A stretch of 64,000 bases of DNA from Candidatus Tectomicrobia bacterium (GTDB lineage Bacteria; UBA8248): the NCBI GenBank assembly GCA_016192135.1, contig JACPUR010000013.1, positions 186,001 through 250,000 of the forward strand, read 5' to 3'. Made by a program: the position numbers and the translations under genes. Shown here in pieces: positions 6,248-24,171 of this stretch. The number at the start of each line of letters is the position of its first letter. Within the stretch, counting starts at the first letter, position 1. The notes under the pieces were generated by a model. It did not search any database. It saw nothing but the letters and a program-made list of their open reading frames with translations, and was not told the origin of the DNA.

Positions 6248-7558
6248 TCAGCCCGGGATGCCGTCCGGACGCGGACGGGCAAGGATGGGAAGGTAGACCC
6301 AGAGATAGAGGAGGAACGCGGCCGCCCAAAGCGCCCCGGAGAAAATGAGCGCCTCGCGGTAGCTTTCGTAGATCGCGATCGGCGCCAGGGTGCGGACCAG
6401 CGCGGCCGCGGACACGAAAAGGTAAGCGGCGGCGATCGCGGGCCGGATTTCAGCCGGCCGTCCCGTATGCAGGAGGCCCACGATGGACATGACGGCCAGA
6501 ACCATGGTGCCGATGCCCCCCGCCGTCATGGCGTGCAGCCCGCTCACCCAGGGCACGGGTCCTCCCAGGTACGCCCAGCCGACTAGCGCCATGCCGGCGG
6601 TCAGCCATGCGTAGCCCAGGTGCAGGGCGCAGATGAACGGCTTGAGCAGCTCGCGTCCCGCGCGCCACACCGCCATGCGCGCCGCCTGAGCGAGGGCGGT
6701 TGCGAGGGCCGCGCCGCCCGCCCATGCCGACTCATGCATGAAAAGGTCGAGGAGAACGAACAACGCCATCGAACCGACGGCCAGTCCCTCGAGCCAGGGG
6801 CGGAAGGCCGGCTTGCGGGGAAAACCTCGTCCCAGCCTCGCCACATTCAGGAAGGTCGGGACGATGCGCCCGATGATGATCACGATCAGCAGGGCGAGTA
6901 GGTTCACCCCCAGCCGCAGGCCCACGGCAGCCGCCCCCGCCACCCCCGTCCACGCCTCCAGGTGCACCAGGGCGTTGGCCAGGAAGAAAAGACCCAGGGC
7001 CAAGAGGAAGAGAAGATTGTGCCGGTTCCCCCGCGACAGGAGCACCGGCAGGATGGCCGCCGCGAGAATCGGGAACAGGGCGAGATCCGCGGCCGCGACG
7101 AGGATGGACGGCAGAATTCCGGACAGCCACATCGCCGCCCGGCCGGCCGCCCATGCTCCGATGACCAGCGCGAGCTTCCGGCCCGTCACGGGCGGGATCT
7201 GGCTCCAGGTGGACGAGGCCGTGAGAAGGAATCCGCACACCGCCGCGGCGGCGAACCCGAACACCATCTCGTGGCCATGCCATACGACGGGATGAAAGGC
7301 CACCTTCACGGGCAAGGATTCCACGAACGCGGCCAGCCACAGCGGCAGGAACAACGCCCCATAGAGCGCGGCCAGCAGGAAGAAGGGCCGGAATCCGTGG
7401 CTCAGGAGAGGCACGCAAGCCGGCCTTTCCGGAGGCGCCGCAGAAATCGTCAGCAGCGGCGGCGCCGCCCGCCGGTCCTGCGCCGCCGGGAATGCCCCGC
7501 GGGAAGGCGGAACGGATGATTGTCCGCGCGTCACGGGGAGGTGCATTTGCAATGGCAT
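6248..7558 (-). CDS. nnrS: NnrS family heme/copper membrane protein
   Basis: A 436-residue polytopic inner-membrane protein with about twelve hydrophobic segments. Family features include LSHGFRPFFLLAALYG near the N-terminus, the histidine-containing WHGHEMVFGFAAAA, HLEAWTG, and GLHAMTAGGIGTMVLAVMS. NnrS proteins contain heme and copper and are associated with nitric-oxide metabolism and nitrosative-stress resistance. ATG at 7558 is chosen because a GAGG lies close upstream; it starts 10 bp after the stop of the cytochrome gene. Its position as last gene of the molybdoenzyme operon supports an N-oxide substrate for that enzyme. Confidence 0.93.
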   Translation of the reverse strand: MPLQMHLPVTRGQSSVPPSRGAFPAAQDRRAAPPLLTISAAPPERPACVPLLSHGFRPFFLLAALYGALFLPLWLAAFVESLPVKVAFHPVVWHGHEMVFGFAAAAVCGFLLTASSTWSQIPPVTGRKLALVIGAWAAGRAAMWLSGILPSILVAAADLALFPILAAAILPVLLSRGNRHNLLFLLALGLFFLANALVHLEAWTGVAGAAAVGLRLGVNLLALLIVIIIGRIVPTFLNVARLGRGFPRKPAFRPWLEGLAVGSMALFVLLDLFMHESAWAGGAALATALAQAARMAVWRAGRELLKPFICALHLGYAWLTAGMALVGWAYLGGPVPWVSGLHAMTAGGIGTMVLAVMSIVGLLHTGRPAEIRPAIAAAYLFVSAAALVRTLAPIAIYESYREALIFSGALWAAAFLLYLWVYLPILARPRPDGIPG

Positions 7559-7568
7559 GGATGAAACC

Positions 7569-9104
7569 TCACTCGATCCGAAGCTTGTACCACGTGGTGA
7601 CGGATTTCTGGCCGTTTCGGTCCCGCCGGAAGCCGTCCCACACCGCGAAGCCGATGGGGTGGATCGAGCCCGCCAGGAGCTGGGCATCCTGCTTGCCCGG
7701 GCTCTCCATCGAGCGCGTGAAGACCACCCGCCACTTGCCCCTGAACCACCGCGCCTGCCCCTGGACGTTCTGGTCCTTCGGGCCCTGGGGCTGGAGGGTG
7801 CCGAAGCCCCCCGCGTTCAGGTCCATGAATGGCCGGGCCAGGCCGGGCGTGGAGATGGGGTTGCCGGCCGCCCAGGCCGAAACGAAGGGCGTCCGCGTGG
7901 CGCGCGAGGCCGCGATGGGGGGGTGCCCCATCTCCTTCCGGGGATAAGGTTTCCCCGAGAGAGGATAGTCGTCCACGGCCATGCCCGCGTAGGTCGCCTC
8001 CACATCCACCGGAGGTGCGGCCCAGTGCCAGATGTTCACGAGGTTGTCGCGAGCGCCCATCACGAAGAGGGGCGGATCCTTCTCGCCGAGGGAGAACTGG
8101 ATGGCGGCGGCATCCCCGAAGGTGCCGACCGACCCCATCCGGTCGGGCGTCGCGTCGTCCCATTCCAGGAGGATGGAGATGCTCGTCTCGTCGTGGAGGG
8201 CGCGGACGTTCATCTCGATGGGCGGCCGGCCGTCGTTGTTGAGCTGCATCATGGGGATGGGCGTGGGGATGACCTTGGCCCATTGCGGGTCGTCCGTCCG
8301 CAGGGACGCCTTGCCCTGCGCCCGCCGGGCCGGGATGACGCCGGTGCTCGGCTGCCAGAAGTCGCGGCCCTTGGAGAACTGCCGCACGTAGTGGGCCAGG
8401 GCGATCACGTCCTCTTGCTTTTCGAGCACTTCCGCGTGGGAGGGCATGGGGGTGCCCTCGATGCCGGTCAGGATGCGGGTGATGATGGACTGGACGTCGC
8501 CCCCTCCCTTGAATACCCCTTTCGTGTAGTCGTTCGGCCGGATGGGCCGCTTGAGATAGTCCTTCAGCTCGGCCGCGCTGGTGCCCTTTCCGTCCCCCTT
8601 GTCGCCGTGGCACTTGTTGCACTCGTACTTGAGATAGGCCGCCTTGCCCTTGGCGAGCCATTCGGGCGTCGCGGGGGGCGCCTTGGGGATTTTGACGAAC
8701 TCGGCGGGCTCGTTCTCGAAGCCCGCCAGCGAGAGGACGTACTCGGCCACTGCCCGGAGGTCGCTCTCGGGGAGTGAGACGAAGCTCGGCATGGTGGAGC
8801 CTGGAAGCCCCAGGAGGAGGACGCGCACGATGTCCGACCGCTGGGGCGCCTCGCCCGAAGGGGTGGTGCGGATCTTGAACATCTTGGAGGTGAAGTCGCG
8901 CGGGGCGGGAAAGAGGAGATAGGCGGCCTCGCCGTCCCCCTTCCCCGCCGGGCCGTGGCAGACCGCGCACTCGCGCGCATATACGGCCTTGCCCCGCTCG
9001 GCCAGCTTGGCGTCGATCTTCATGGGGGCGGCCCAGCCGGGGGAGGCGGCCACGGCGAGGAAGAGCGTCCCAGCGGCGAGGACCATTCCCTGTCTCAAAA
9101 GCAT
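7569..9104 (-). CDS. Fused diheme cytochrome c / EB_dh heme-binding subunit (NxrC-like)
   Basis: A 511-residue exported protein with a Sec signal peptide ending near GWAA. Two c-type heme motifs follow, CAVCH (residues 46-50) and CNKCH (162-166), each with a later methionine that can be the axial ligand (GSTMPSF, GTPMPSH). From about residue 270 the sequence resembles the ethylbenzene-dehydrogenase/DMSO-reductase gamma heme domain: the EWDDATPDRMG segment, the NIWHWAAP segment and a basic RWFRGKWRVVFTR. In the NXR/EbDH/selenate-reductase group, gamma subunits carry heme b and pass electrons to cytochrome c. Here both appear joined in one chain. A GAGAGGGA ribosome binding site precedes the ATG. 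Confidence 0.9.
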   Translation of the reverse strand: MLLRQGMVLAAGTLFLAVAASPGWAAPMKIDAKLAERGKAVYARECAVCHGPAGKGDGEAAYLLFPAPRDFTSKMFKIRTTPSGEAPQRSDIVRVLLLGLPGSTMPSFVSLPESDLRAVAEYVLSLAGFENEPAEFVKIPKAPPATPEWLAKGKAAYLKYECNKCHGDKGDGKGTSAAELKDYLKRPIRPNDYTKGVFKGGGDVQSIITRILTGIEGTPMPSHAEVLEKQEDVIALAHYVRQFSKGRDFWQPSTGVIPARRAQGKASLRTDDPQWAKVIPTPIPMMQLNNDGRPPIEMNVRALHDETSISILLEWDDATPDRMGSVGTFGDAAAIQFSLGEKDPPLFVMGARDNLVNIWHWAAPPVDVEATYAGMAVDDYPLSGKPYPRKEMGHPPIAASRATRTPFVSAWAAGNPISTPGLARPFMDLNAGGFGTLQPQGPKDQNVQGQARWFRGKWRVVFTRSMESPGKQDAQLLAGSIHPIGFAVWDGFRRDRNGQKSVTTWYKLRIE

Positions 9105-9116
9105 GGCGAGTCCCTC

Positions 9117-9881
9117 TCAGAGCGAAGCCGGGCCGTTCTCCCCGGCGGTTTGCCAATCGGAGGCGTCCCACTCGTCGGCGGCCATCGGGAGGAATTCTCC
9201 CCGCGTGACATCGGCCACGGCGGCGGGAGAGGCGGCATTCGCCCGCGCCTCGGCGGCGATGTAGTCGGCCAGCATCCGCGCCGCGGCTCTGTAGGGCCCC
9301 TCCGCATTCCAGCGCTTGAGGCGCTTCGCGAAGACCCCCGCCCAGCGGCCCAGGTGATCCTCGATGAAGGAGACTTGGGCATCCCGGCAGACGCAGGCCG
9401 CCTCGGCGTCCCCGCCCTCCAGGGCGCGCGCCTCCTTGAAGGCCGCCAAATGGAGGAACTCGAGCTGGATGGCGAGGTGATCGAGGCGCTCGGTCCCTTC
9501 CCTCACCCGTACGCCGAAGGCGCGGTAGAAACCGGCCAGGTCGGCGAGGAAATCGGACTGCTGGAAGAGGTGCATGTTGGTGTACTCGGTCTCGTAGGGC
9601 GGGCACTGCTTGGAGATGGTGTGGCCGAAGACCTCCCCGTAGGTTTCGCGAAGAGCGCCGAGGCTCCCGATTCCGCGAAGCCGCATTCCCCCGCCGTGGA
9701 GGCGGAGGGCCTGGTAGGGCGCCTCCTCCCCGAGGAGGGCGCAGGCGAAGGCGAGGGTGGCGCGGGACTTCCTGCCCGTGAGTTCCCTCCAGGCGGCCTC
9801 GTCGGGATAGCGGAAGCAGGCGGCGAGGTAGGCGTAGAGGCGCGACCTTGCATAGGCCGTTACCGCCGGTGAGCCGGTCAT
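9117..9881 (-). CDS. TorD/DmsD-family molybdoenzyme maturation chaperone
   Basis: A 254-residue, mostly alpha-helical cytoplasmic chaperone that would bind the TAT signal of the alpha subunit and hold it until cofactor insertion. The motif CPPYETEYTNMH is characteristic of TorD-like proteins accompanying type II DMSO-reductase-family enzymes, and LADLAGFYRAFG is the next conserved helix. TGAGGAGA lies six bases before the ATG. The gene lies 11 bp after the beta-subunit gene and 12 bp before the cytochrome gene, within the same operon. Confidence 0.92.
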   Translation of the reverse strand: MTGSPAVTAYARSRLYAYLAACFRYPDEAAWRELTGRKSRATLAFACALLGEEAPYQALRLHGGGMRLRGIGSLGALRETYGEVFGHTISKQCPPYETEYTNMHLFQQSDFLADLAGFYRAFGVRVREGTERLDHLAIQLEFLHLAAFKEARALEGGDAEAACVCRDAQVSFIEDHLGRWAGVFAKRLKRWNAEGPYRAAARMLADYIAAEARANAASPAAVADVTRGEFLPMAADEWDASDWQTAGENGPASL

Positions 9882-9892
9882 GGCGCGTCTCC

Positions 9893-11164
<1,272 letters not shown>

Positions 11165-11176
11165 GGGGTGGTCTCC

Positions 11177-11443
11177 TTATCGAACGGCCGAGGGCCAGCC
11201 GGCGAGGGCTTGGGTCACGATTTTTCGGATCTCGTCCTCTCCCATGGCCCGGCAGAGATTGTGGAGCACCGAGTAGAAGGGGTCCCGGAACATGGCCAGT
11301 ATCTCCTCCGGCGTGTGCCCCATGCGGAGGTATTCTTCGGCCAGGCATTTCGCCATCTCGCGCTCTATCTCCGCCGCGGCCCCGGGCATGGGGATGGAAA
11401 CGAGTTCCATCGGGTCTTCGAATTCGAACTCATCCTTGGGCAT
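11177..11443 (-). CDS. Unknown 88-aa protein between the alpha and beta subunit genes
   Basis: A small acidic protein, probably all-helical after an N-terminal EFEFEDPMELV segment, with distinctive stretches GHTPEEILAMFRDPFY and MGEDEIRKIV. It has no signal peptide or membrane segment and two cysteines. A GGGAGA ribosome binding site lies six bases before its ATG, 11 bp after the alpha-subunit stop. Translation between two structural subunits suggests an assembly or stoichiometric accessory role, but I do not recognise the family and assign no function. Confidence 0.85.
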   Translation of the reverse strand: MPKDEFEFEDPMELVSIPMPGAAAEIEREMAKCLAEEYLRMGHTPEEILAMFRDPFYSVLHNLCRAMGEDEIRKIVTQALAGWPSAVR

Positions 11444-11454
11444 CGAATATCTCC

Positions 11455-14400
11455 CTATGCCTTCTTCACCCTGACCATGCCTTCCAGATAGCGGCGCATG
11501 AAGGCGTTCTCCCCTCCGGCGGAGAAACCGGTCGCCGCCGGGGCCCAGACGCCGCGCCCGCCGAGGCCCCCGTCCTCCGCCTTGGTGATCTTCACGAGCG
11601 TCTCCTTGGGGACCGTGTTGACGGCGTGATTGTCCGCCTCTCCCCCAAGGATGAAGCCCATGAAGGCCTTCGTTTTATGGAATAGGGTATCGAGCTGGTG
11701 CATGGGCATGAGCCAGCCCCGCGTGATGGATTGGTGGGAGCCGTAGCGGTAGCTCGCCTGATAGCCCGTGTCGGCCGAGACGGCGCGGCCGTCCTTGCGG
11801 GTTTCGTGGCCTTTCACGCTCTTCTCGGTGGCGCACCAGGCGCCGTGCTTGATCATGACCACGTTGTAGGGATAGGCCGGATTGAATTTCAGGCGCAGCA
11901 TGAGGCGCGCCACCTTGTAGAAGGGATCGTCCGGCTTCCAGCCGATATAGGGCCGGTCGGCCGGGTTCGCGTCCACGTAGACGTAGTCGCCCTCCTTGAG
12001 CCCCAGCGCCTTGGCCGCCTCGGGGTTCATGCTCACTTGGTTCTCGGAGACGCCCGGCTGGCGCTTGTCCATGCGGTAGGGGTCGCCGAAGTCGCTCCCC
12101 CAGATGAAGTTCCAGTCCGTCACCTGCCAGGAGGAGTGGGTGGTGTGGCGGCTCTTGGGAGTGAGGCAGAAGAAGCGGTAGCCGGCCTCCCATAGAGGGT
12201 TCTTCGTCCGCTTGGCCTCGGCCCAGGGGAGCCTGATGTTCCGCACCTGGCGCTCGTCCCAGCCCATGTGCCCGCGCGGGATGCCGTAGTCCTCGGGCCG
12301 GATGTAGGGGTTCGAGCTCACGATGACGTTCGGCAGGTAAGGCGTCGCTTCGGGCCCCTCGCGGTGGACGATGAAGTTCTCGCCGTACTCGATGGTCTCG
12401 GGCTCGTCGTTGTAGGCCTGGAGGCGCCCCGTCGCGGTGTAGAAGGGGACGGAATCCTCGATCTGCTCGAGGAAAGGAATCCGCGGATAGGACCGGAAGA
12501 GCATGAGCGCAGAGCCCGGCTCGCCGTACTTGCCCGCCATGATGTCGGCGTACTTGTAGCCCCGCGTGGTGGTGGAGGAGTCGAGGAGACGCTGGATGTA
12601 CACCTCGGACTTCCGCTCAAGAGCGAATTTCCAATAATCGGCGAAGCGCTTGTCGCCCAGGAGCTCCCCCATCTTCTGGGCCATCTCGGCCATGATGAGG
12701 GTGTCGTCCTTGGTGTCATAGATGGGCTTCACGCCGCCCTTCCAGATCTGGAGGAAGGGGTTTGAGCAGGAAGCCGTGATCTCGGGCTGCTCGAACTCCA
12801 TCCAGGTGTTGGCGGCGAGGATGATGTCCGAATACTCGGCGGTGGAGGTCATCTCGATCTCGGAGCAGACGATCATCTCCACCTTCGGATTCACGTTCTT
12901 GAGCATCTCGTAGAGCCACTTGGCGTTGTTGAAGAGGTTCACGTTCGTGAACCAGAGCGCCTTCGTGGGAGAGGGCATGTGGGTCATGCCGGTGAACACC
13001 TTGCGCCCGTACTTGGGGGTCTCCACGACCAGGGGTTTGTCGCCGTAGTTCCAGTAGGCGGGCTCCTCGTCCTTGGTGTAGCCGTGGGCGTGAATTTCCT
13101 TCCCGTCGGCTCCTGGGTCGAGGTTTACGTCGAAGGGGTCCTCGGCCACCCAGCCCTTGAAGCCGGGGCCCGTCCAGGCGGAGCCCTGGAAGAGGGCCGC
13201 CTTGTAATTGCCCGCCCAGGTGTGCGAGCCCGCGCCCGGCTTGCCGATATTCCCGGTCAAGATGAGCGGAAGATAGGTGGCGCGGTTGATCCCCGTCGCG
13301 TGGAACCAATGGTTGATGCCCTCGCCCACGTGGATGGCGGCGGGCTTGATGGTGGCGATGTCCTTCGCGATCTGCTCGATGAGCTCCTTGGGCGCCTGTG
13401 TGATCTCGTGGACGGTGTCGAGGTCGTAATCCTTGAGATGATGAGTCTTATACATCTCGAAAAGGGGCATGACCTCGACGGTTTGGCCATCCACTGTCTG
13501 GACCTGAAACTTGCCCTCGAGGGCCGGGTCGAGGCCCTTCTTCACGAAATTCTTCCCGACGTCGTCCCGGGTGATGACGGCAGCGCGGTTCGTCCGCCGA
13601 TCCCACACCATGAAGTCGCCGGTAATTTCGCGCAGCTGGGGCGTGAGGCCGTGGACCTTGAAAGAGGCTCCTTGGGAGATGTCCTGGTTCTTGTAGCCGG
13701 GGACCACGTCCTGGGGCTGGAGCCGCTTCAGGGTGTCCGTCCGGACGAGGAGGGGGAAATCCGTGAATTCCTTGACGAACTTCTCGTCGTACCATTTGCG
13801 GTCTATGAGGATCTTGGTGACACCGAGCAGGAGGGCGGCGTCCGACTGCGGCCGGATGGGGACCCAGTAATCCGCCTTGGTACCCACGGGGCTGTACTCG
13901 GGCGTGATGACGGCGACCTTGGCGCCGCGTTCCATGCACTCGATGAAGAAGTGGCTGTCGGGCCGTTTGTTCTCGACGAGGTTCTTTCCGATGTGGAGAT
14001 GGTATTTGGTGGAGCGCAGATCGTTGAAGTCGCAGTCGGAGGCCTGAAGGCCGTGGACGAAAGGGTGGCCCGGCGCCTGGTCGCCGTGCCAGGTATAGTT
14101 CGACCAGACGCGCCCGCCCTTGGCCTTATCCGGGCTCACCCCCCGCACATGGGTATCCAGCAAAGCCATCGTGTTGGCGAAGCGGTACATGCCGTACTTG
14201 CCGATGACGCCGAGCAGGCCCATGCCCCCCCGGAACTTCATGACCCGGGTGCCGGCCCCCTCCACGTGTGAGAGCATCTCGGGGGCGTAGCCCTGGGCGA
14301 GGAGGCGCTTCTTTCCTTCCTCTCCGCTATAGGTCCTGGCGATGTGGATGAAGCCCTTGGCGGCATAGGTGTAGGCCTCGTCCCAGCTCACGCGGAGGAA

Positions 14401-14898
14401 GGTATCCTGCCCTCGGGCGGTGAAGCCGTACTTCTGGGCGTTCGCCGGGTTCAGCTCGGGGAAACCGTCGTCCGCCCAGCGCTTCCAGCCGCGCCGGATC
14501 ATGGGGTAACGCACCCGGTAGGGGCCGTACATGCGGCGCTGGAAGGTGAAGCCGTTGGCGCACCCGCGCGGATTCCAGTGGTGGGTGGCCTTGTTCCCGT
14601 CGAGGTCGCTGATCCGGTGCTGGTCGTAGTTCTGCTCCGCCCGAAGGACAACGCCGTTCCGGGTGAAGGCGCGCATCCGGCACTCGTGGGTGCAGTTGGG
14701 CGAGCAGACCCAGGTGAAGGATTCGTCCCATTTGTATTGATCGCGGTAGACCTTCTCCCAGCCCCGGGAGGGATAACTGCCCAGGGGGTTGTCCACCTCG
14801 CTGACAGGCGCCAGGGCCGCGAGGGAGAGCCCGCGGGCGCTCCATGCGAGGAGCCCCGCGCTGCTGGCTGCCAGGAACTGGCGTCGGGAGACGTTCAT
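11455..14898 (-). CDS. nxrA: NxrA-type molybdopterin oxidoreductase alpha subunit (periplasmic nitrite oxidoreductase-like)
   Basis: A 1147-residue catalytic subunit with a TAT signal (SRRQFLAASSAG), so exported folded. Cys65, Cys69, Cys73 and Cys113 would hold an N-terminal [4Fe-4S] cluster. TWHGDQAPGHPF places Asp273 at the molybdenum-ligand position of type II DMSO-reductase-family enzymes. Length and many segments (MGLLGVIGKYGMYRF, GRKVFTGMTHMPSPTK, NPADRPYIGWKPDD, VNTVPKETLVKITKAE) agree with what I remember of NxrA from Nitrospira and anammox bacteria. Nitrite oxidation, nitrate reduction or another oxyanion remain possible. The ATG overlaps the preceding stop (ATGA). Confidence 0.9.
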   Translation of the reverse strand: MNVSRRQFLAASSAGLLAWSARGLSLAALAPVSEVDNPLGSYPSRGWEKVYRDQYKWDESFTWVCSPNCTHECRMRAFTRNGVVLRAEQNYDQHRISDLDGNKATHHWNPRGCANGFTFQRRMYGPYRVRYPMIRRGWKRWADDGFPELNPANAQKYGFTARGQDTFLRVSWDEAYTYAAKGFIHIARTYSGEEGKKRLLAQGYAPEMLSHVEGAGTRVMKFRGGMGLLGVIGKYGMYRFANTMALLDTHVRGVSPDKAKGGRVWSNYTWHGDQAPGHPFVHGLQASDCDFNDLRSTKYHLHIGKNLVENKRPDSHFFIECMERGAKVAVITPEYSPVGTKADYWVPIRPQSDAALLLGVTKILIDRKWYDEKFVKEFTDFPLLVRTDTLKRLQPQDVVPGYKNQDISQGASFKVHGLTPQLREITGDFMVWDRRTNRAAVITRDDVGKNFVKKGLDPALEGKFQVQTVDGQTVEVMPLFEMYKTHHLKDYDLDTVHEITQAPKELIEQIAKDIATIKPAAIHVGEGINHWFHATGINRATYLPLILTGNIGKPGAGSHTWAGNYKAALFQGSAWTGPGFKGWVAEDPFDVNLDPGADGKEIHAHGYTKDEEPAYWNYGDKPLVVETPKYGRKVFTGMTHMPSPTKALWFTNVNLFNNAKWLYEMLKNVNPKVEMIVCSEIEMTSTAEYSDIILAANTWMEFEQPEITASCSNPFLQIWKGGVKPIYDTKDDTLIMAEMAQKMGELLGDKRFADYWKFALERKSEVYIQRLLDSSTTTRGYKYADIMAGKYGEPGSALMLFRSYPRIPFLEQIEDSVPFYTATGRLQAYNDEPETIEYGENFIVHREGPEATPYLPNVIVSSNPYIRPEDYGIPRGHMGWDERQVRNIRLPWAEAKRTKNPLWEAGYRFFCLTPKSRHTTHSSWQVTDWNFIWGSDFGDPYRMDKRQPGVSENQVSMNPEAAKALGLKEGDYVYVDANPADRPYIGWKPDDPFYKVARLMLRLKFNPAYPYNVVMIKHGAWCATEKSVKGHETRKDGRAVSADTGYQASYRYGSHQSITRGWLMPMHQLDTLFHKTKAFMGFILGGEADNHAVNTVPKETLVKITKAEDGGLGGRGVWAPAATGFSAGGENAFMRRYLEGMVRVKKA

Positions 14899-15884
14899 CG
14901 GCGTGAGCCTCCAGTCAGGGATGGTGTCCGGCCGTCGGAGCGGGACACCGGGGCGAAGAACGCCCCGAGAAGATAGCGGTTCGCGCACTGGGTGCAGAGA
15001 CCCTGGGAGGGAGACCAGGCGGGGTAGTCGGCTTGAACGGCCTCGATGAGTCCTGGGGAGGCCTCCGCCCATTCGAAAGTGGTGAAGCGGCATAGTGGGC
15101 AGGGAGATCCGCCCGGGCTGCGGGCGGGCCGTTCCCTGGAGGCGGATGCCTCAAACGGAATGCCCAGGGCCGCGCACAGCTCCGGAGCGCCCCTCACCAT
15201 CCGGCGGAAGGCGGGATCGGAGGGGCGGGGCCCTGACCACAGCGTCTCGATGGCCTTCGCGGCGCTCTCCTCATCCAGGGCCGGGAACAGGGAGCGGAAC
15301 TCGGCGGCGCGACGTTCGCGGACGTCGGAAGGGAGCCGCCCCGACCGGCCGAGCCGCCCGTCCACCGAGAGATCCCATAAGGTGCGATAGCGGTCGCGGA
15401 GGAGGCTCTCCTCGGAGGGAGCGGCCGGAGCGAGGGGTGACGCGGGGTCATGCTCGAAACGCGGATCCAGCATGTCCTGAATGTGGGTGAGCTCGTGGCG
15501 AAGGAGGTAGGCGCAGGCCGCCTCGTCCAGCAGCGTTTCGGTCCGGATCCGCACTCCCAGTATGCTCGCATCCTCGCTGAGCTGGATGCCTTCTTCCTCG
15601 CCCTTGAAGGCGCGGGAGAAGAGGCATGCCGCAGGCAACAGGGCGTCCGGCTCTATCTCGCAGATGAGCCTTTCGAGCCGGCCGGCATGAGGGAGGGCGG
15701 CCAGGGTCCTTTGATAGAGGGAGAGAAATGCCGCCTGGCGCCTCTGAAGAGGGATGGTCCGGTAGATGGCGTCGGCCGCCCTGCGGAAATCCCGCATGGC
15801 GGCGGGGTCGCCGCCCCGAACCTGGGCGCCCATCTCCCTCTCGACCACCTCTTCGCATAGAGCGTCGTCGAAGAGCAGTTTCAT
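14895..15884 (-). CDS. Zincin-like putative metalloprotease with C-terminal zinc ribbon, first gene of the molybdoenzyme operon
   Basis: A 329-residue cytoplasmic protein (no signal peptide). RHELTHIQDML contains an HExxH zinc motif (His130, Glu131, His134), and the downstream LWDLSVDGRLGRSG offers an acidic third-ligand candidate. The C-terminal part has two CxxC pairs, CPLC (262-265) and CTQC (297-300), 31 residues apart, looking like a treble-clef or zinc-ribbon unit. ATG 15884 is chosen because TTGGAG lies just upstream. Its stop overlaps the nxrA start (ATGA), so the two are translationally coupled. I know no named family with this architecture; processing or quality control of the enzyme is only inference. 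Confidence 0.75.
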   Translation of the reverse strand: MKLLFDDALCEEVVEREMGAQVRGGDPAAMRDFRRAADAIYRTIPLQRRQAAFLSLYQRTLAALPHAGRLERLICEIEPDALLPAACLFSRAFKGEEEGIQLSEDASILGVRIRTETLLDEAACAYLLRHELTHIQDMLDPRFEHDPASPLAPAAPSEESLLRDRYRTLWDLSVDGRLGRSGRLPSDVRERRAAEFRSLFPALDEESAAKAIETLWSGPRPSDPAFRRMVRGAPELCAALGIPFEASASRERPARSPGGSPCPLCRFTTFEWAEASPGLIEAVQADYPAWSPSQGLCTQCANRYLLGAFFAPVSRSDGRTPSLTGGSRR

Positions 15885-16280: not shown

Positions 16281-19200
16281 TTACTTCCGCGTGCAAACCA
16301 GAGCCCCACCGTAGGTGCACTCGATGGGGCCGAGGTTTCGCCAGAATTCTTCAAAAAGATAATTCACATTTCGATAGAGGTTCTCCGTCCCGGGAGCCGG
16401 CCGGATGAGCGCGTAGTCCCGATCGAAGGGGCCGACGATGTGGCCCGAGGAAGTCTCATTCCGGCGGAACACGGCATCGGCCGGAGAGTCAGGAGGCGAT
16501 TCATTGGATTCGCCCAAGGAAACGGGATTTGGGGAACCTCCCGCCGGTGTCTGGGTCGTGCCGATGGATGCGGCGACGGTGTTCGCCTTCTCATAAGTTC
16601 CAGGAAGTGGATTCGGCGTTTCCGGAGTCGTGACCGCCGGGGCTGGCGCAGGCGCCGGAGTGTTCGGCGCCGGGGTTGGAGCCGGCGCGGGAGCCCCAAT
16701 CGGGTGGCCGTTCATCGTATAAGGCCCGGCCTTGGGTCCCTCAATGGTGATCAGGGCCGCGGCCCCGGCGCCGCCCGCGCCGGCGACTTTCCCCGTGAGG
16801 ACCGCGCTGGCGCCCGAGATGGTCAGCGAATTCACGTTCAGGTCGCCGGTGATGGTGCCGCTCGCCAGCAGTTTGGTGTTTCCGGCGGTCATGTTCCCTT
16901 TGATGTCGGTGGCCTTCACCGTGACGGCCCCGGCCGCGTCGAGGCTCGCCGTGCCGAAGTCCGTTGTTCCGCTCCCGGCGTCCTGCGTCAGCGAATTCAC
17001 CCGGAGGACGTTCCCCACAGTCACGTCCCCCGCGCTTTCGATGGTCAACGCTCCGAGCCGCGCCGTTCCGCCCGCCGCCGCGTTGAAGGTGACGTCGCCG
17101 GAGGTGCCGGCCCTCAGGGTGAGATCCTGGCCCCCGGCGGACGCCGCGTTCAGCGCGCCGTTCAAGGTGATGTTCCCGCCGGCCACGGTCTCCCCTCCGT
17201 TCGTCGTGTCGAGCGTGAGGCCCGAGCCGAGGGTCAATCCTTGGTTGAAAGTGATGCCGCCGCCGGCCCGGGTGGAAATGACTCCCCCCGCATTGATGTT
17301 GTCGTTGACCGTCACGCTCAGCGCGTTCAGCGTGAACCCGCCGGCCCCGGTGATGCCCCCCGCCGTGGCGTCCAGGGTGAGCGCCCCGGCCGAGGTGAGG
17401 GTCACCCCCGCCGCGATCCGGATGTCGTCGTTCGCGTCCGCGGCGTTGTTCGAGTTCCCGTCCAGGGCGAGGCCGCCCGTGTCCGTCGTCAGGCTGGCGT
17501 TGAGGCTGATGCGGTCCCTAGCCTTCACCGACAGGGCATTAAAGGTTGAAGCGCCGCCGGAGAAGGTCACCTGGCCCCCCGCCGCCGTGGCCTCGAGGGT
17601 GAGGGTACCGGAGACGTTGTTGCTCTGGCCCGCGGTGACCCCATCCACGGTGATCCCGGTGGTGTTGGCCCCGCCCAGGGTGAGGCCGCCGGCCGTGATG
17701 TTCTGAAGCTCGGCGCCGCTGATGTTCATGTCGCCTGCCGCCCCCAGGCCGATCGTCCCCGCCGAGGAGCGGGAGATGGTGGTGGCGGCCCCCCCGCTGC
17801 TCAGGCCCCCCTGGAGGCCGAGGTCGGCGGCGGTGATTGTGAGGGAGTTCCCCCCGGTGGAGAGGGACATGCCGGCCGCCACGGTGAGGGTTCCCGTCCC
17901 GTCGTTGTTTGTGTCGGCGTTGACTGCCGTCGCTCCCCCGGTGGTGAGGCTCTGGCTGAGGGTCACCCCCGCCAGGGCGTTCACGTTCAGGGGCTTGTTG
18001 ATCGTGGAGGCGGCCCCGGAGAAGCTCACCGTGCCCCCCGCGCCGGTGGCGGTTAGGGTCAAGGTCCCGGAGATGCCGGCGAGGTTGGCCGCGGTGACGC
18101 CGTCCACGGTGAGGGTGGTGGTGTTGGCCCCGCCCAGGGTGAGGCCCGCCGCCGTGATCTTCTGGAGCTCGGCCCCCGAGATCGCGAGCCCGACCGCAGC
18201 CCCCCCGAGGCGGAGCGTCCCCGCCGAGGAGCGGGAGATGGTGGTGGCGGCCCCGCCGCTGTTCAGGCTCCCCTGGAGGTCGATGTCGGCCAAGGTGAGC
18301 GTGAGGGAGTTCCCCCCAGTGGAGAGCGTCATGCCGGCCGCCACGGTGAGAGAGCCCGCCCCGTCGTTGTTGGTGTCGGCGTTGCTCGACGTCGCTCCCG
18401 CCGTGGTGAGGCTGTCATTGACCGTCACGCCGCCCGCGGCGTTCAGCGTGAGCGCGCCGGCCCCGACGATGCCCCCCGTCGTGGCGTCCAGGGTGAGGGC
18501 CCCGGCCGAGGTGAGGGTCACCCCCGCCGCGATCCGGAGGTCGTTGTTGGCCTCCGCTCCACCGCTATTGCTGTTGTTGGCGTCCCCGTCCAGGGTGAGA
18601 GCACCCGTGTCCGTCGTCAGGCTGGCGTTGACGCTGACGCGGTCGTTGGCGTTGACCGCCAGGGTCTTGAACGTCGAGGCCGTGGTCTGGAAGGTCACCG
18701 CGCCCCCCGCTGCCGTGGCGTTGAGGGTGACGGTCCCGGAGATGCCGGCGAGGCTCAGCGCGGTGATGCCGTCCACGGTGAGAGTAGTGGTGTTGGCCCC
18801 CCCGATGGTCAGTCCCGTGGCCGTGATGTTCTGAAGCTCGTCCCCCGAGATCGCGAGCCCGACCGCCGCTCCCCCGAGGCTGATCGTCCCCGCCGAGGAG
18901 CGCGAGATCGTCGTGGCCGCCGCGCCGCTGTTCAGGCTCCCGGTCCCCTGGAGGTCGAGGTCGGCGACGGTGATGGTCAGAGGGTTCCCCCCGGTCGAGA
19001 GCGTCATGCCGGCCGCCACGGTGAGGGTTCCCGCCCCGTCGTTGTTGGTGTCGGCGTTGACCGCCGTCGCCCCCGCCGTGGTCAGGCTCTGGTTCAAAGT
19101 CACGCCGGCCAGGGCGTTCACGTTCAAAGCGCGGTTGACCGTCGAAGCTAACCCCGAAAAGGTTACCGTCCCCCCCGCGCCGGTGGCGTTCAGCGTCAGC

Positions 19201-22200
19201 GGCCCGGTGACGGTATTGAGGTCGGCCACCGCGAGGTTGTTCACCGTCAGCCCGGTGGTGTTCGCCCCCCCGATGGTGAGCCCGCTCGCCGCCGTGATGC
19301 TCGCTAACTGCGCCTTGCTGAGGGTCATGTTCGCCCCCGCGGCGTCGCCTAGGCCGATCGTCCCCGACGAGGCGAGGGTCACGGAGCCCGCGCTGTTGAG
19401 CGTGCTGTTGAGCGCAATGTTGGTGGCTGAGATCGAGAGGTTCCCCGTGTCGGTCGTAACGCCGACGTTCATCGTGGCCGCGCCGGTGGCGTTCACCGAC
19501 AGGGCGTTGAAGGTCGAGGCCGCGGTCTGGAAGGTCACCGCGCCCCCCGCCGCCGTGGCCTCGAGGGTGAGCGTGCCCGAGACATTGTTGCTGTTCGCCT
19601 CCGAGATGTTGTCCACCGTGATCGCGGTGGTGTTGGTTCCCCCGATGGTCAGCCCCGTCGCCGTGATTTTCGCCAGCTCGATCTTGTCGAGGATCAAGCC
19701 CACCGCGCCGTCACCAAGAGTGATCGTCCCCGCCGAGGAGCGGGAGATGGTGACGGAGCCCGCGCCGGTGTTCACCGTGCCCACAAGGGCGAGGTCGGCG
19801 GCGGAGATGGTGAGGGAACCGCCTCCCGGCGCGGTGAGGTTGTCGTTCAGCGTGACGATGCCCGTGGCGCTAAGGGTGTGGGCGCCTGCCCCGTCCAGGA
19901 CGATGCCGCCGGTCGTGGCGTCGAGCGTGAGGGCCCCGGCCGAGGTGAGAGTGACTCCCGCCGCGATTTGGATGTCGTTGTTCGGGACCCCGGCGTTGTC
20001 CGCATTCCCGTCCAGGGTGAGGGCGCCGGTGTCCGTCGTCAGGCTGGCGTTGACGCTGACCCGGTCGTTGGCGTTGACCGCCAGGGCGTTGAACGTCGAG
20101 GCCATCCCCGAGAAGGTCACCTGGCCGTTCGCCGCCGTGGCCTCGAGGGTGAGCGTGCCGGAGATGTTGTTGCTGTTCGCCTCCGCGACGTTGTCCACCG
20201 TGATCTTGGTGGTGTTGGTGCCGCCCAGGGTGAGGCCATTCGCCTTGATGCGCTTGAGCATGGCCCCGCTGAGGGTCATGTCCCCCCCGGCCGCCCCGAG
20301 GCCGATGGTGCCGAGGGTCGAACGCCGGATGGTGGTCGCGGCCGTCCCGCTGTCCAGGCTCACGTTGCCGTTGAGGCTGAGATTGGCCGCCGTGACGGTC
20401 AGGGTGTTGTTCCCCGTGGACAGCGATCCGTTCGGCGCCGCAACGGTGAGGGTGCCGATGCCGTCAGCGTTCGTGTCGGCGTTGACGGTGGAGGCGGCGG
20501 CCCCGGCGACGGCGTTGGAGATGGTCACGCCGTTGCGCCCGTTGAGAGTGATGCCTCCGCCGCCATTCGTGTTCAGCCCGCCGACTGTGACAGTGGCTCC
20601 GTCAATGCGGATACTGGCCCCATTGGTCCGGATGGTGTCGCCGATATTCATCGTGAAGGCGCCGGCGCCGTTGCCATCCGCGTCCGCCGTGAAAACCACC
20701 GACGCCGTGGCCCCCAGAGCCAGCAGGTTGTCGTCGAGGTTGCTGATCGTGATGTTGTTGTTTGCTTGGAGGATAATGGTAGCCTGAATCAGCCCTTCGA
20801 GCGCGGTTTCCGAGATGGTGTAGGGAGTTGGAGGAGTGGCAGCAAGAATGATGCCGCCTTGTGCCACTAGATCCAAGTCTTGCGCGCCGCCACCGCCGTC
20901 AACGATATTGATGTCGTCGGGATCCAGCAAAAGCGTGCCCGTCCGGCCCTTGGGCGCGCGGGTGTCCACCCATCCCCGGAAGGCGAGGTCCTGCTTGCCC
21001 GAGACCTCGACGAAGCCGCCGTCCCCGCCCGAGGGCCCGCCCCGGGCGGTGATGGAGCCGGCGAACCAGGTGGTCCCGTCGGCCCAGACGATGACCTTGC
21101 CGCCGTCGCCGAGCGTCAGGGCGTCGGCGGTGAGGGAGGCGCCGGGGGCCACGTAGGTGACGGCGGCGGTGGGGATGGCTCCCTTGCCCTGGTAGTCGCC
21201 CCCGATGAGGGCGGTCCCGCCTCCCCCATCCCCCGAGACGTCGATGAGGGCCCCGCCGAAAAGCCCGATCCTGTTGCCCAGCACCTCGACCCGCCCGCCC
21301 CGCTGCCCCGCCTGCTTGCCGGAGGCGTCGAGGGCGCCCGAGACGCGGACGATGCCCTCGTCCCCGCCGGCGAGGATGATCTCGCCGTTTCTCTGGACGG
21401 CCGTCCTGGCCTCGACGACGCCGCTCAGGTTGATGACGTTGTCGACGATGCCCTTCGCGGCCTGGGCGGTGAGGAGGATGGTGCCGCCCTCGGCGCTGAT
21501 GCGCCCGGAGTGGGCGAGGAGGTCGGCGACGGGCGTCCCGTCCGGCCCCGTCATCTTCTCCAGGACCTTGCCGTCCGCGGCGAGCTGGATGAGCCGGTCC
21601 CCGTAGAGGTCGAGGGTGAAGGTGAGACCCGCCCCCAGCGCGACGCGCCCCAGGCGGGCCTCGATGACCCCGGAGTTCTCCACCCACGGCGCCACCAGGG
21701 CGACGAGGCCGCCCTCGGCCGCGGTGATGGTTCCGCGGTTGATGACGTAGCCGCCGCCCGCGCCCGGCGTCTTGAAGCTGTACCGGCCGGCCAGGAAGTC
21801 GTCGTTGCGGATGTCCGAGGTGGTGGCGACCAGGCCGTTGACGTCGATCCGCGCGGATTGCCCGAACAGGATGCCGTTGGGGTTGACGAGGAAGAGGTTG
21901 CCGTTGGCGGTGAGCCGGCCGTGAATCTCGGAGACGTTGCCTCCGGTCACGCGGTTGAGTGTGACGGAGGAGGCCGAGGGCTGCTGGAAGTCGGCGTGCT
22001 CGCCGGCGCCGATGCTGAACGAGCGCCAGTCGATGATCGCCTTCTGGGTGCCCTGAACGACGTTGAGGCGCTTAGGGGAGGGCTGCTCGATCCGGGCGGA
22101 GCCCGCGATCAGCCGCCCCCCCATGGGGTTGGCGCGTGCGGCGGGGGACGCGAGCAGGCTCGCCGCAAACACGGCGGCCCCCGCCCGCCGGGCGAGCCCG

Positions 22201-22217
22201 GCCCGGCGGGGGGACAT
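16281..22217 (-). CDS. Two-partner secretion exoprotein TpsA (filamentous-hemagglutinin-type, repeat-rich)
   Basis: A 1978-residue secreted beta-helix protein. After a signal peptide ending in ARAN, residues to about 250 form a TPS domain: RLNVVQGTQKAIIDWRSFSI, ADFQQPS, and the diagnostic FLVNPNGILFG. The middle carries many copies of a repeat with cores like SRSSAGTI and GLTIGGANTT. A Pro/Ala-rich linker (PAPAPTPAPNTP) follows, then a short tail with two cysteines (CTYGGALVC) four residues from the end. ATG 22217 is favoured by an AGGAGA nine bases upstream; 22259 is an alternative in-frame ATG. The gene lies downstream of its transporter. Ligand and adhesive role are unknown. Confidence 0.93.
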   Translation of the reverse strand: MSPRRAGLARRAGAAVFAASLLASPAARANPMGGRLIAGSARIEQPSPKRLNVVQGTQKAIIDWRSFSIGAGEHADFQQPSASSVTLNRVTGGNVSEIHGRLTANGNLFLVNPNGILFGQSARIDVNGLVATTSDIRNDDFLAGRYSFKTPGAGGGYVINRGTITAAEGGLVALVAPWVENSGVIEARLGRVALGAGLTFTLDLYGDRLIQLAADGKVLEKMTGPDGTPVADLLAHSGRISAEGGTILLTAQAAKGIVDNVINLSGVVEARTAVQRNGEIILAGGDEGIVRVSGALDASGKQAGQRGGRVEVLGNRIGLFGGALIDVSGDGGGGTALIGGDYQGKGAIPTAAVTYVAPGASLTADALTLGDGGKVIVWADGTTWFAGSITARGGPSGGDGGFVEVSGKQDLAFRGWVDTRAPKGRTGTLLLDPDDINIVDGGGGAQDLDLVAQGGIILAATPPTPYTISETALEGLIQATIILQANNNITISNLDDNLLALGATASVVFTADADGNGAGAFTMNIGDTIRTNGASIRIDGATVTVGGLNTNGGGGITLNGRNGVTISNAVAGAAASTVNADTNADGIGTLTVAAPNGSLSTGNNTLTVTAANLSLNGNVSLDSGTAATTIRRSTLGTIGLGAAGGDMTLSGAMLKRIKANGLTLGGTNTTKITVDNVAEANSNNISGTLTLEATAANGQVTFSGMASTFNALAVNANDRVSVNASLTTDTGALTLDGNADNAGVPNNDIQIAAGVTLTSAGALTLDATTGGIVLDGAGAHTLSATGIVTLNDNLTAPGGGSLTISAADLALVGTVNTGAGSVTISRSSAGTITLGDGAVGLILDKIELAKITATGLTIGGTNTTAITVDNISEANSNNVSGTLTLEATAAGGAVTFQTAASTFNALSVNATGAATMNVGVTTDTGNLSISATNIALNSTLNSAGSVTLASSGTIGLGDAAGANMTLSKAQLASITAASGLTIGGANTTGLTVNNLAVADLNTVTGPLTLNATGAGGTVTFSGLASTVNRALNVNALAGVTLNQSLTTAGATAVNADTNNDGAGTLTVAAGMTLSTGGNPLTITVADLDLQGTGSLNSGAAATTISRSSAGTISLGGAAVGLAISGDELQNITATGLTIGGANTTTLTVDGITALSLAGISGTVTLNATAAGGAVTFQTTASTFKTLAVNANDRVSVNASLTTDTGALTLDGDANNSNSGGAEANNDLRIAAGVTLTSAGALTLDATTGGIVGAGALTLNAAGGVTVNDSLTTAGATSSNADTNNDGAGSLTVAAGMTLSTGGNSLTLTLADIDLQGSLNSGGAATTISRSSAGTLRLGGAAVGLAISGAELQKITAAGLTLGGANTTTLTVDGVTAANLAGISGTLTLTATGAGGTVSFSGAASTINKPLNVNALAGVTLSQSLTTGGATAVNADTNNDGTGTLTVAAGMSLSTGGNSLTITAADLGLQGGLSSGGAATTISRSSAGTIGLGAAGDMNISGAELQNITAGGLTLGGANTTGITVDGVTAGQSNNVSGTLTLEATAAGGQVTFSGGASTFNALSVKARDRISLNASLTTDTGGLALDGNSNNAADANDDIRIAAGVTLTSAGALTLDATAGGITGAGGFTLNALSVTVNDNINAGGVISTRAGGGITFNQGLTLGSGLTLDTTNGGETVAGGNITLNGALNAASAGGQDLTLRAGTSGDVTFNAAAGGTARLGALTIESAGDVTVGNVLRVNSLTQDAGSGTTDFGTASLDAAGAVTVKATDIKGNMTAGNTKLLASGTITGDLNVNSLTISGASAVLTGKVAGAGGAGAAALITIEGPKAGPYTMNGHPIGAPAPAPTPAPNTPAPAPAPAVTTPETPNPLPGTYEKANTVAASIGTTQTPAGGSPNPVSLGESNESPPDSPADAVFRRNETSSGHIVGPFDRDYALIRPAPGTENLYRNVNYLFEEFWRNLGPIECTYGGALVCTRK
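17500..20350 (-). repeat. Degenerate tandem repeats within the TpsA gene
   Basis: DNA blocks recur through the beta-helix region; for example the segment encoding SRSSAGT is found near 17,755, 18,220, 18,890 and 19,730. It is each time followed within about 100 bp by sequence for STGG or SLTTDTGALTLDG-type units. Neighbouring copies share long near-identical stretches, so units have duplicated recently and the number of repeats is likely variable. Confidence 0.8.
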
Positions 22218-22422
22218 GCGGGAGCGTCTCCTGGACAGCCAAAATCCGCATTCGTCCATCGTTCTCGGGCGTGAATACCTCTTTAAATTTTCCTGAACTG
22301 AGAATTAACATATTAATCGGCATCCTCTTGAAATACCACGAATTTTGAGGTTTTTCCGGATGATAGAGCTGTTGCGTTTTGAGAATCCGGGGAGTGATAT
22401 ATCTGGTATTTGCGTTTCAGAT

Positions 22423-24171
22423 TCAGAATCTCATTACGACCCCGAAAAAAAGACGGGGATCATCCCCATCGCCTCCGCGCGCCGCCACCCCCCGGGTGAG
22501 AGGAACGGCGATTTCCAGATGGCCGGAAATCATGTCGGTGATGTTGAGCCGGACTCCCCCGCCCGCCGACGCCAGCGATTCCCGCCGCCCGCCGCCGCTC
22601 GTTGCGCGGTTCCAGACGGCCCCAAAATCGTAGAAGGCGTACAACTGGACGCCCCGGGCGGCCCGAAGACCGAAGGGCTGATCAAGCCGAAGCTCCGCCT
22701 TCAGCGCGATTCCGTGGTCGCCGACAATCTCGGAGGGATCGTAAGCCCGGCCGAACTGCCCGCCCCCCACGCCGAATTCTTCGGAGGCGAGGAGCTGGCT
22801 GCCTCCGTACTGCCCCTGAAACGACATGAAAAGCGACAATTCCGAGAACAGGTGCTGAAGACGCGACAGTTCCGCCGTCACTTTGGTGAAGTCGCTTTTC
22901 CCATTCTCCCGGGAGAGGTTCGGGGAGCCGGTTTTCGTTTCGCCAAAGATGTCCAAACCTTGGCTCAGGCCCACGTCCAGCAGGGTCACGCCGCGCAGGC
23001 GGTCGGCGAAATCGTAGGTGAAACCGAAGGTGGCGATGCGCAGGCGGTCTTCCGTCAGGCGCTCCCCCAGTATCTCGCTCTCCGACCGCCGGGCGGTGAT
23101 CCCGGCCCGCATCAAGAGGTTTTGGGTGCGGGAACGAATGAAGGGCTGAATCAGGGTGAGTGAAACCGCCGTATTCCGGTTTTCGAACTCAAGCGGCTTC
23201 AGGTCATCGCCCGGCTCCGACCGGCTGTGGTTGACGGAAAAGATCGCCTTGGTGCCTTCGGCGCCCAATGGGATCTCGTGCATGAGCTGGCCGAATCGAA
23301 GTTCCTTCGGCGGCAGGGCGTGTATGAACCGCAGATCGGTTCTTTCAAACAGCCCGAAGGCCGAGTTGAAGGCAAGGCCGTAATAGAGCTGGTGGGGACC
23401 GATGAACTCGGTGCCGCGGTTGTCGAAACTGACAAACCCGTCGAAGTTATCCTGGGTGACCTCCAGGATGAGGTCGGAGGCTCCCGGCTGGGTCTCGGAT
23501 GGCACGAGCACCGACCGCACGCTCACACCCGGAAGGTCGTTCGCGAGCAGAAGGTAGTGTTCCAGCTCCCCTACCCGGAGAGGGCGCGACCGCTCGATTT
23601 TGCCGGCGTAACTTCTAAGGAGAGCCGATGAGCCAAGTATCTCCCCTTTGATAATGACCTGATTGATGAAACCCTCGATCACCCTCAGCCGAACTATGCC
23701 GCCGCGGATGTGCTGGGGAGGCACGATCACCTGGGAGAGGATGTAGCCATCGTTCCGGTATTTGGCGGTGATGGCCGCGGCGATCCCGTACACGTCCGCG
23801 AGCGAAATCTCTTTTCCTAAGTGATGCTCGTAGAACCGCAGAAAATCAGAATCTTTATAGACGGTGGAGCCTTCGACCACCACTCCGGCGAGGGCGAAGC
23901 GTATCTTCCCGGCCTCGCCCGGGGGAAGCGCCCGCTCCGCCGGCGGGACCACCGGCTCGATCGCCGATCGCGGCCTCTTGGGCGCTTCGAACCGCTCTTC
24001 GATTCGCCCAGGCTCCACAGTGGGAGGTACCGCCTGAGCGGAAGCTTCTTTCATGCCCAGCGCGGTCGAGAGCGCGACAAGAACCGTCATCCAACAAAAA
24101 AAGCGGGTCGACCCTGTGCCAGAGCTGCGAGATTTCAGGCGGCTGGCGGTGTACAAAACGGCTCCGTACAC
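22423..24171 (-). CDS. TpsB outer-membrane transporter of the two-partner secretion system (ShlB/FhaC type)
   Basis: An Omp85-superfamily pore of up to 582 residues that would secrete the TpsA encoded just downstream. After a signal peptide ending ASAQA and a Pro-rich stretch, a POTRA domain starts near FALAGVVVEGSTVY and contains RNDGYILSQVIVPPQ and LRVIEGFINQVII. A second POTRA precedes the barrel. The terminal RLFFGVVMRF ends in the Phe typical of outer-membrane barrels. Start choice is uncertain: GTG 24171 opens the frame, but TTG 24156 has a GGAG five bases upstream. The order transporter then exoprotein is common for such pairs. Confidence 0.92.
   Translation of the reverse strand: MYGAVLYTASRLKSRSSGTGSTRFFCWMTVLVALSTALGMKEASAQAVPPTVEPGRIEERFEAPKRPRSAIEPVVPPAERALPPGEAGKIRFALAGVVVEGSTVYKDSDFLRFYEHHLGKEISLADVYGIAAAITAKYRNDGYILSQVIVPPQHIRGGIVRLRVIEGFINQVIIKGEILGSSALLRSYAGKIERSRPLRVGELEHYLLLANDLPGVSVRSVLVPSETQPGASDLILEVTQDNFDGFVSFDNRGTEFIGPHQLYYGLAFNSAFGLFERTDLRFIHALPPKELRFGQLMHEIPLGAEGTKAIFSVNHSRSEPGDDLKPLEFENRNTAVSLTLIQPFIRSRTQNLLMRAGITARRSESEILGERLTEDRLRIATFGFTYDFADRLRGVTLLDVGLSQGLDIFGETKTGSPNLSRENGKSDFTKVTAELSRLQHLFSELSLFMSFQGQYGGSQLLASEEFGVGGGQFGRAYDPSEIVGDHGIALKAELRLDQPFGLRAARGVQLYAFYDFGAVWNRATSGGGRRESLASAGGGVRLNITDMISGHLEIAVPLTRGVAARGGDGDDPRLFFGVVMRF

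What the first reader, a model, noticed from the sequence alone, without database searches (positions are those of the whole stretch)
6248..15884. Complete operon for an NXR-type periplasmic molybdoenzyme in a heterotroph-like gene background
Seven genes with gaps of 13 bp or less, or overlaps, encode an NxrA-like alpha subunit with TAT signal and Asp molybdenum ligand, an NxrB-like beta subunit, a TorD-like chaperone, a heme gamma/cytochrome protein, NnrS and two unknown proteins. Motifs and the 1147-residue length fit the nitrite oxidoreductase branch of the type II DMSO-reductase family. The neighbourhood is full of organic-carbon uptake and breakdown genes, unlike classical nitrite oxidisers. 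The operon could work as nitrite oxidase, nitrate reductase or oxidise/reduce another oxyanion.
Basis: partly seen in the sequence, partly recalled or inferred. Interest (0 to 1): 0.85.

Follow-up and report, generated by a model that had tools for sequence, protein, structure and literature searches.

The report
Nitrite-oxidase-type operon in a heterotroph
An uncultured bacterium that appears to live on organic carbon carries a complete set of genes for the periplasmic nitrite/nitrate-converting enzyme known from nitrite oxidisers and anammox bacteria, in a sub-lineage whose first iron-sulfur cluster is predicted to be held by four cysteines; whether it makes or consumes nitrate in the cell is not shown.

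Summary
On the minus strand at 15884-7569 there is a tight six-gene unit: a Zn-knuckle protein, nxrA, an 88-aa protein, nxrB, a TorD-type chaperone and an NxrC fused to a diheme cytochrome c. NnrS (6248-c.7414) follows more loosely. NxrA and NxrB match the solved Kuenenia nitrite oxidoreductase end to end (1824 and 619 bits), far above PcrA, EbdA and NarG. All cofactor ligands are kept, as are three residues that separate NXR from NAR (N310, E526, K915). One ligand differs: at FS0, where Kuenenia has Asp71, this protein has Cys69, which predicts a four-cysteine cluster. 29 of 89 homologues share it, mostly in one clade. The two 'unknown' proteins are conserved NXR-operon genes that track NXR across 98 genomes. 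The genome is most likely phylum UBA8248 ('Ca. Tectomicrobia'/Spongiamicota). No other Nar/Nap/Nxr enzyme, RuBisCO, ATP-citrate lyase or acetyl-CoA synthase was detected; two aa3-type oxidases were. Marine UBA8248 genomes with nxrB are already published as putative nitrite oxidisers. Best reading: a genuine NXR-family enzyme coupling periplasmic nitrite oxidation to oxygen in an organoheterotroph; the direction in vivo is inferred.

The parts
14895..15884 (-). Zn-knuckle accessory protein (329 aa): CPLC...CxxC strictly conserved, HExxH-like helix only partly conserved; probably the 'putative zinc finger protein' of known NXR clusters; inferred assembly factor
   Evidence: Invariant C261/C264/C296/C299 and degenerate HExxH; no Pfam family; directly upstream of nxrA in Brocadia/Kuenenia loci too; strong hits only in NXR genomes
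11455..14898 (-). nxrA, catalytic Mo-bisMGD subunit, Tat signal, 1147 aa
   Evidence: 7b04_B NxrA 1823.6 bits over residues 1-1141; PcrA 244, EbdA 183, NarG about 124-130
14692..14694 (-). Codon of Cys69, in place of Kuenenia Asp71: predicted fourth cysteine of FS0 (with C65 14704-14706, C73 14680-14682, C113 14560-14562)
   Evidence: Alignment of 89 NXR-like rows: 60 Asp, 29 Cys
14080..14082 (-). Codon of Asp273, predicted Mo ligand (Kuenenia Asp275)
   Evidence: Invariant in all rows; PMC8387239
11177..11443 (-). 88-aa small helical protein conserved in NXR operons between nxrA and nxrB; inferred assembly or subunit-pairing role
   Evidence: Between A and B in 57 of 80 loci and beside A in 5 more; absent from 9 anammox loci that hold enough sequence; 10 of 13 NXR genomes, 0 of 85 others; model of four helices, pLDDT 87
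9893..11164 (-). nxrB, four-cluster Fe-S subunit, 423 aa
   Evidence: 7b04_A NxrB 619 bits end to end, Cys motifs aligned
9117..9881 (-). TorD/NarJ-type chaperone
   Evidence: PF02613; TIGR03482 below cut-off
7569..9104 (-). NxrC fused to an N-terminal diheme cytochrome c: two CxxCH, then heme-b domain with Met and Lys ligand positions aligned
   Evidence: Residues 30-242 match 6h5l_B (147 bits); 295-511 match 7b04_C NxrC (94 bits) with Met and Lys positions aligned; PF09459
6248..7414 (-). NnrS-type membrane protein, loosely attached to the operon
   Evidence: PF05940 1e-98; start from codon usage; among 80 homologous loci found only in the same-genus L024

Best explanation
The operon encodes a periplasmic nitrite oxidoreductase of the type II DMSO-reductase family. 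Shown by sequence: NxrA with Tat signal and Mo ligand, NxrB with aligned Fe-S ligands, and an NxrC whose heme-b domain is fused to a diheme cytochrome c, with TorD and two accessory proteins. Inferred: NxrA-NxrB is loaded with Mo cofactor by TorD, exported by Tat and docked to NxrC; nitrite is oxidised to nitrate at Mo; electrons run FS0-FS4, heme b, the fused c-hemes, then to one of two aa3-type cytochrome c oxidases. In this apparently organoheterotrophic bacterium that would be a supplementary energy source, reversible to nitrate reduction when oxygen is scarce. The predicted four-cysteine FS0 would shift that cluster's potential from the characterised enzyme's.
For: End-to-end match to the solved Kuenenia NXR for A and B and NxrC heme-b domain with both heme-ligand positions aligned. 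NXR-specific residues N310, E526 and K915 kept, against T/A/H in NarG; NXR-like in all 89 rows except one gap at K915 (residues named in PMC12300631). Only NXR/Nar/Nap-type Mo enzyme among those found in the genome. Two COX1 genes, both scoring best with cytochrome c oxidase CtaD models, one beside a CoxB, and no NirK above cut-off. Related UBA8248 genomes with nxrB occur in nitrite-oxidising oxygen-deficient waters (PMC11373643). The Kuenenia enzyme oxidises nitrite and also reduces nitrate (PMC8387239).
Against: No activity, expression or growth data. Cys69 is the residue NarG carries at this position. The genome lacks the carbon-fixation markers tested, so nitrite need not be its energy source. 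With methyl viologen the Kuenenia enzyme reduces nitrate about 25 times faster than it oxidises nitrite with ferricyanide (PMC8387239). No physiologically proven nitrite oxidiser was identified in the four-cysteine clade. Nitrospira NxrA could not be placed by name in the tree.
Confidence: 0.55

Rival explanations
1. Same enzyme, run mainly backwards: a periplasmic nitrate reductase that accepts electrons from organic-carbon oxidation through c-type cytochromes, with NnrS dealing with nitrosative stress.
For: Organic-carbon background, NAR-type Cys at position 69, NnrS next door, Kuenenia NXR reduces nitrate readily (PMC8387239).
Against: Fused diheme c and a heme b with EbdC/NxrC-type ligands suit a high-potential acceptor; no quinol-oxidising membrane gamma in the operon; NXR-type N, E and K at the active site; aa3 oxidases present; no NirK above cut-off. 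Quinol dehydrogenases elsewhere, NirS, Nor and Nos were not searched separately.
Confidence: 0.33
2. The enzyme acts on another oxyanion or substrate (chlorate, selenate, a hydrocarbon) and only looks like NXR.
For: Type II enzymes are versatile; the FS0 ligand set differs from characterised NXR.
Against: More than 1500 bits separate the NXR match from PcrA and EbdA; active-site residues are NXR-like in all rows.
Confidence: 0.08
3. The operon is a binning or assembly artefact from a real nitrite oxidiser.
For: The assembly is probably a metagenome bin; NXR genes are known to be hard to bin (PMC10839748).
Against: It lies inside a 277-kb contig; six other genomes of the family carry it with the same gene order where visible, and the family's NxrA rows form one clade with the window.
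Confidence: 0.03

Closest known systems
Kuenenia stuttgartiensis NXR-ABC (PDB 7b04, PMC8387239)
   Same: Subunits A and B end to end, heme-b NxrC domain with aligned Met/Lys positions, Mo Asp, Asn70, Glu527, Asn312, Lys917 equivalents; TorD and Zn-knuckle protein adjacent in anammox loci
   Different: FS0 predicted 4Cys instead of 3Cys/Asp; NxrC carries a fused diheme cytochrome c; an 88-aa protein sits between nxrA and nxrB
UBA8248 oxygen-deficient-zone genomes NOB7-10 (PMC11373643)
   Same: Same lineage by NxrA; ODZ_NOB7a NxrA 80% identical, same gene order, also 4Cys
   Different: Marine; treated there as nitrite oxidisers from taxonomy and nxrB; the passages read do not examine their carbon metabolism or FS0 ligand; no NnrS match at that locus
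Nitrospina/Nitrospira NXR clusters (PMC3578206)
   Same: NxrA, NxrB, NxrC, TorD and a putative zinc finger protein; periplasmic by Tat
NarG-type nitrate reductases
   Same: Type II family, Asp Mo ligand, Asn next to the cluster, Cys at position 69
   Different: NarG has His at position 65 and T/A/H at the three active-site positions; sequence scores far lower

Membership tests
Periplasmic nitrite oxidoreductase (Kuenenia/Nitrospira/Nitrospina type) | NxrA and NxrB closest to NXR rather than PcrA, EbdA, ClrA or NarG, full length | tested here: met
Periplasmic nitrite oxidoreductase (Kuenenia/Nitrospira/Nitrospina type) | Tat signal on NxrA and Asp Mo ligand | tested here: met
   Motif RRQFL read directly (no signal-peptide program run); D273 invariant
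Periplasmic nitrite oxidoreductase (Kuenenia/Nitrospira/Nitrospina type) | NXR-type residues near Mo (Kuenenia N312, E527, K917) | tested here: met
   N310, E526, K915
Periplasmic nitrite oxidoreductase (Kuenenia/Nitrospira/Nitrospina type) | FS0 held by 3Cys/1Asp, as in Kuenenia (3Cys/1His is the other arrangement reported for NXR and NAR) | tested here: not met
   C65, C69, C73, C113: four cysteines by alignment. It departs from the solved member, so it is filed as a variant of the NXR family, not as the characterised type; the cluster itself was not observed
Periplasmic nitrite oxidoreductase (Kuenenia/Nitrospira/Nitrospina type) | Heme-b gamma subunit with Met/Lys ligands | tested here: met
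Periplasmic nitrite oxidoreductase (Kuenenia/Nitrospira/Nitrospina type) | Catalyses nitrite oxidation to nitrate | not testable with these tools
   No enzyme assay or expression data
Autotrophic nitrite-oxidising bacterium | Carbon fixation by rTCA (ATP-citrate lyase) or Calvin cycle (RuBisCO) | tested here: not met
   No RuBisCO, no PF16114 and no PF03598 match in own genome (genome 97% complete). POR-type oxidoreductases are present, so a reversed oxidative TCA cycle is not excluded
NarG respiratory nitrate reductase | FS0 with His at the first position; T/A/H near Mo | tested here: not met
   C65, N310, E526, K915
Ethylbenzene, selenate or DMS dehydrogenase/reductase | Alpha subunit nearest EbdA, SerA or DdhA | tested here: inconclusive
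   EbdA only 183 bits; SerA and DdhA sequences not on hand

The most novel reading that the evidence does not exclude
A large, multi-phylum clade of NXR enzymes with an all-cysteine FS0 gives organoheterotrophic bacteria a reversible periplasmic nitrite/nitrate enzyme wired directly to c-type cytochromes, so nitrite oxidation is widespread as a side energy source outside autotrophic nitrifiers.
Probability: 0.35. Interest if true: 0.75.

Novelty: new variant of a known kind. Interest (0 to 1): 0.5.

Why it matters
NXR genes are used as markers of nitrifiers. If a clade with a different first electron-transfer cluster and heterotrophic hosts works mostly as a nitrate reductase, many 'nitrite oxidiser' calls from metagenomes are wrong; if it oxidises nitrite, nitrite oxidation is not confined to autotrophs. 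The FS0 ligand is a single-residue hypothesis that can be tested. The conserved 88-aa protein is an unnamed component of most operons in this wider NXR group.

Tried and rejected
HExxH in the accessory protein first suggested a metalloprotease; rejected as a function claim because several homologues lose both histidines while the C-terminal cysteines are invariant, and structure searches gave only weak zincin-like matches (best Z about 5, Foldseek E above 0.2). No convincing structural relative for the 88-aa protein; its PDB sequence hits are short matches to designed repeat proteins. PF06778 (chlorite dismutase family) is present in nearly all family members with or without NXR, so it is not a nitrite-oxidiser marker here. 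PF16114 gives weak scores (22-34 bits) in relatives and none in the own genome. A NirK-like copper protein scores far below the NirK cut-off. Rooting of the NxrA tree is unsure because the only outgroups are very long, so whether Asp or Cys is ancestral was not decided; one tree (LG+G4) drew the 4Cys rows as a basal grade, the mixture-model tree as a clade with support 90. Flanking genes are not syntenic even within the genus. Promoter and terminator scans of the operon gave nothing above chance.
Full report
What is there. The minus strand from 15884 to 7569 holds six genes spaced by -4 to 12 bp: a 329-aa protein, nxrA (1147 aa), an 88-aa protein, nxrB (423 aa), a TorD-type chaperone (254 aa) and a 511-aa cytochrome. 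NnrS follows; its long ORF overlaps the cytochrome gene, but the domain starts at residue 93 and codon usage places the start at 7414, so it is probably separated by about 154 bp. Among 80 homologous loci an NnrS match was found only in the same-genus L024.

Identity of the enzyme. NxrA aligns over its whole length with Kuenenia NxrA (7b04, 1824 bits); the next enzymes are perchlorate reductase (244), ethylbenzene dehydrogenase (183) and NarG (about 124-130). NxrB aligns end to end with Kuenenia NxrB (619 bits). The C-terminal half of the cytochrome matches Kuenenia NxrC, with the heme-b Met and Lys positions aligned, and its N-terminal half is a diheme cytochrome c related to 6h5l_B. The own genome has one NXR-type alpha gene, and the other molybdopterin proteins examined match N/S-oxide reductase, NuoG, formate-dehydrogenase-like and other families, none NarG or NapA.

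Active site and FS0. Asp273 (Mo ligand) and Asn68 are kept. Three residues reported to differ between NXR and NAR (Kuenenia N312, E527, K917; PMC12300631) are N310, E526 and K915 here; N and E are the same in all 89 NXR-like rows and K in 88 with one gap, while NarG has T, A and H. The exception is FS0. Kuenenia holds this cluster with three Cys and Asp71, and NAR with three Cys and His; the structure paper reports these two arrangements across the lineages it aligned (PMC8387239). The window has C65, C69, C73 and C113, that is, Cys both where Kuenenia has Asp71 and where NarG has His. Of 89 NXR-like rows, 29 have this four-Cys set and 60 have Asp. No mention of a four-Cys NXR was found in the papers read, which is not proof of absence.

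Phylogeny. The window groups with Ca. Tectomicrobia RIFCSPLOWO2_12_FULL_69_37 (93% identity) and with ODZ_NOB7a and ARS89 (80-81%) at full support. The four-Cys state is strongly clustered, with at least three changes on the tree; most four-Cys rows (this family, a Rokubacteria bin, non-anammox Planctomycetota, Myxococcota, Marinimicrobia) fall together with support 90 in the mixture-model tree and apart from anammox. The root is not resolved. Nitrospira could not be included by name; G022, unnamed, falls beside an anammox-type row.

The two unknown proteins. Both are conserved NXR-operon genes. The 329-aa protein has an invariant C..C...C..C knuckle and a degenerate HExxH, lies directly upstream of nxrA in Brocadia and Kuenenia hertensis, and is probably the 'putative zinc finger' protein noted in NXR clusters of Nitrospina, Nitrospira and Kuenenia (PMC3578206). 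The 88-aa protein lies between nxrA and nxrB in 57 of 80 loci and beside nxrA in 5 more; it is missing from 9 anammox loci that hold enough sequence. In 98 genomes the 88-aa protein occurs in 10 of 13 with NXR and 0 of 85 without (Fisher P 2e-11); strong hits of the Zn-knuckle protein occur in 9 of 13 and 0 of 85 (P 5e-10). These genomes are related, so the P values overstate independence; outside the window's family the numbers are 3 of 6 and 2 of 6 against 0 of 74. Neither has a Pfam or NCBIfam family in the scans made, or a clear solved relative. Their role in assembly is inferred from position and co-occurrence.

Organism and background. The own genome (3.92 Mb, 97% complete) is most likely phylum UBA8248 (named Spongiamicota in PMC11920076): its closest NxrA relatives are a 'Tectomicrobia' bin and ODZ_NOB7a, and NOB7-10 are assigned to UBA8248 (PMC11373643). 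This placement is by inference; no marker-gene tree was run. Seven of 18 genomes of the family carry NXR; none of the seven genomes of genus g5 does. The window is rich in uptake and breakdown genes. The own genome has no match to RuBisCO, the ATP-citrate lyase citrate-binding domain or acetyl-CoA synthase; POR-type oxidoreductases exist, so a reversed oxidative TCA cycle is open. It has two aa3-type oxidase subunit I genes and no NirK above cut-off.

Verdict. An NXR-family enzyme is well supported (my estimate 0.95 for family, 0.85 for nitrite/nitrate as substrate). Net nitrite oxidation in the cell is the more likely direction but only modestly so, because the solved relative works both ways (PMC8387239) and no activity data exist. 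NXR in this phylum and in many unusual phyla is already published (PMC11373643, PMC9562985). What is added here is the predicted four-cysteine FS0 clade, the fused diheme NxrC, the assignment of the two 'unknown' proteins, and the lack of the tested carbon-fixation markers.

Noticed in passing
window 16281-24090 (-): A 1978-aa filamentous-haemagglutinin-like exoprotein with TPS domain and its FhaC/ShlB-type outer-membrane transporter (two-partner secretion pair) lie directly upstream of the NXR operon.
   Followed up: no
L104:3001-6174: Natronococcus occultus plasmid carries an unlisted NXR-like alpha gene (37.6% identity to the window NxrA over 91%) followed by a 4Fe-4S beta and a TorD gene.
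   Followed up: partly
G010:C128 and G010:C189: One relative (G010) carries two NXR loci, one of the family's own type (81%) and one 64% identical, each with an 88-aa-protein hit; possible second acquisition or mis-binning.
   Followed up: no
L137:2188-5621: In relative G003 nxrA is split between two overlapping frames: a frameshift or sequencing error.
   Followed up: no
L106:1514-7043: A conjugative plasmid of Alisedimentitalea scapharcae holds a chlorite dismutase-family gene beside a type II Mo enzyme, beta, TorD and cytochrome c set.
   Followed up: no
L143:7417-8565: Multicopper protein with a twin-arginine-like N-terminus, NirK-like in its first domain (103 bits, cut-off 296), function unclear.
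   Followed up: partly
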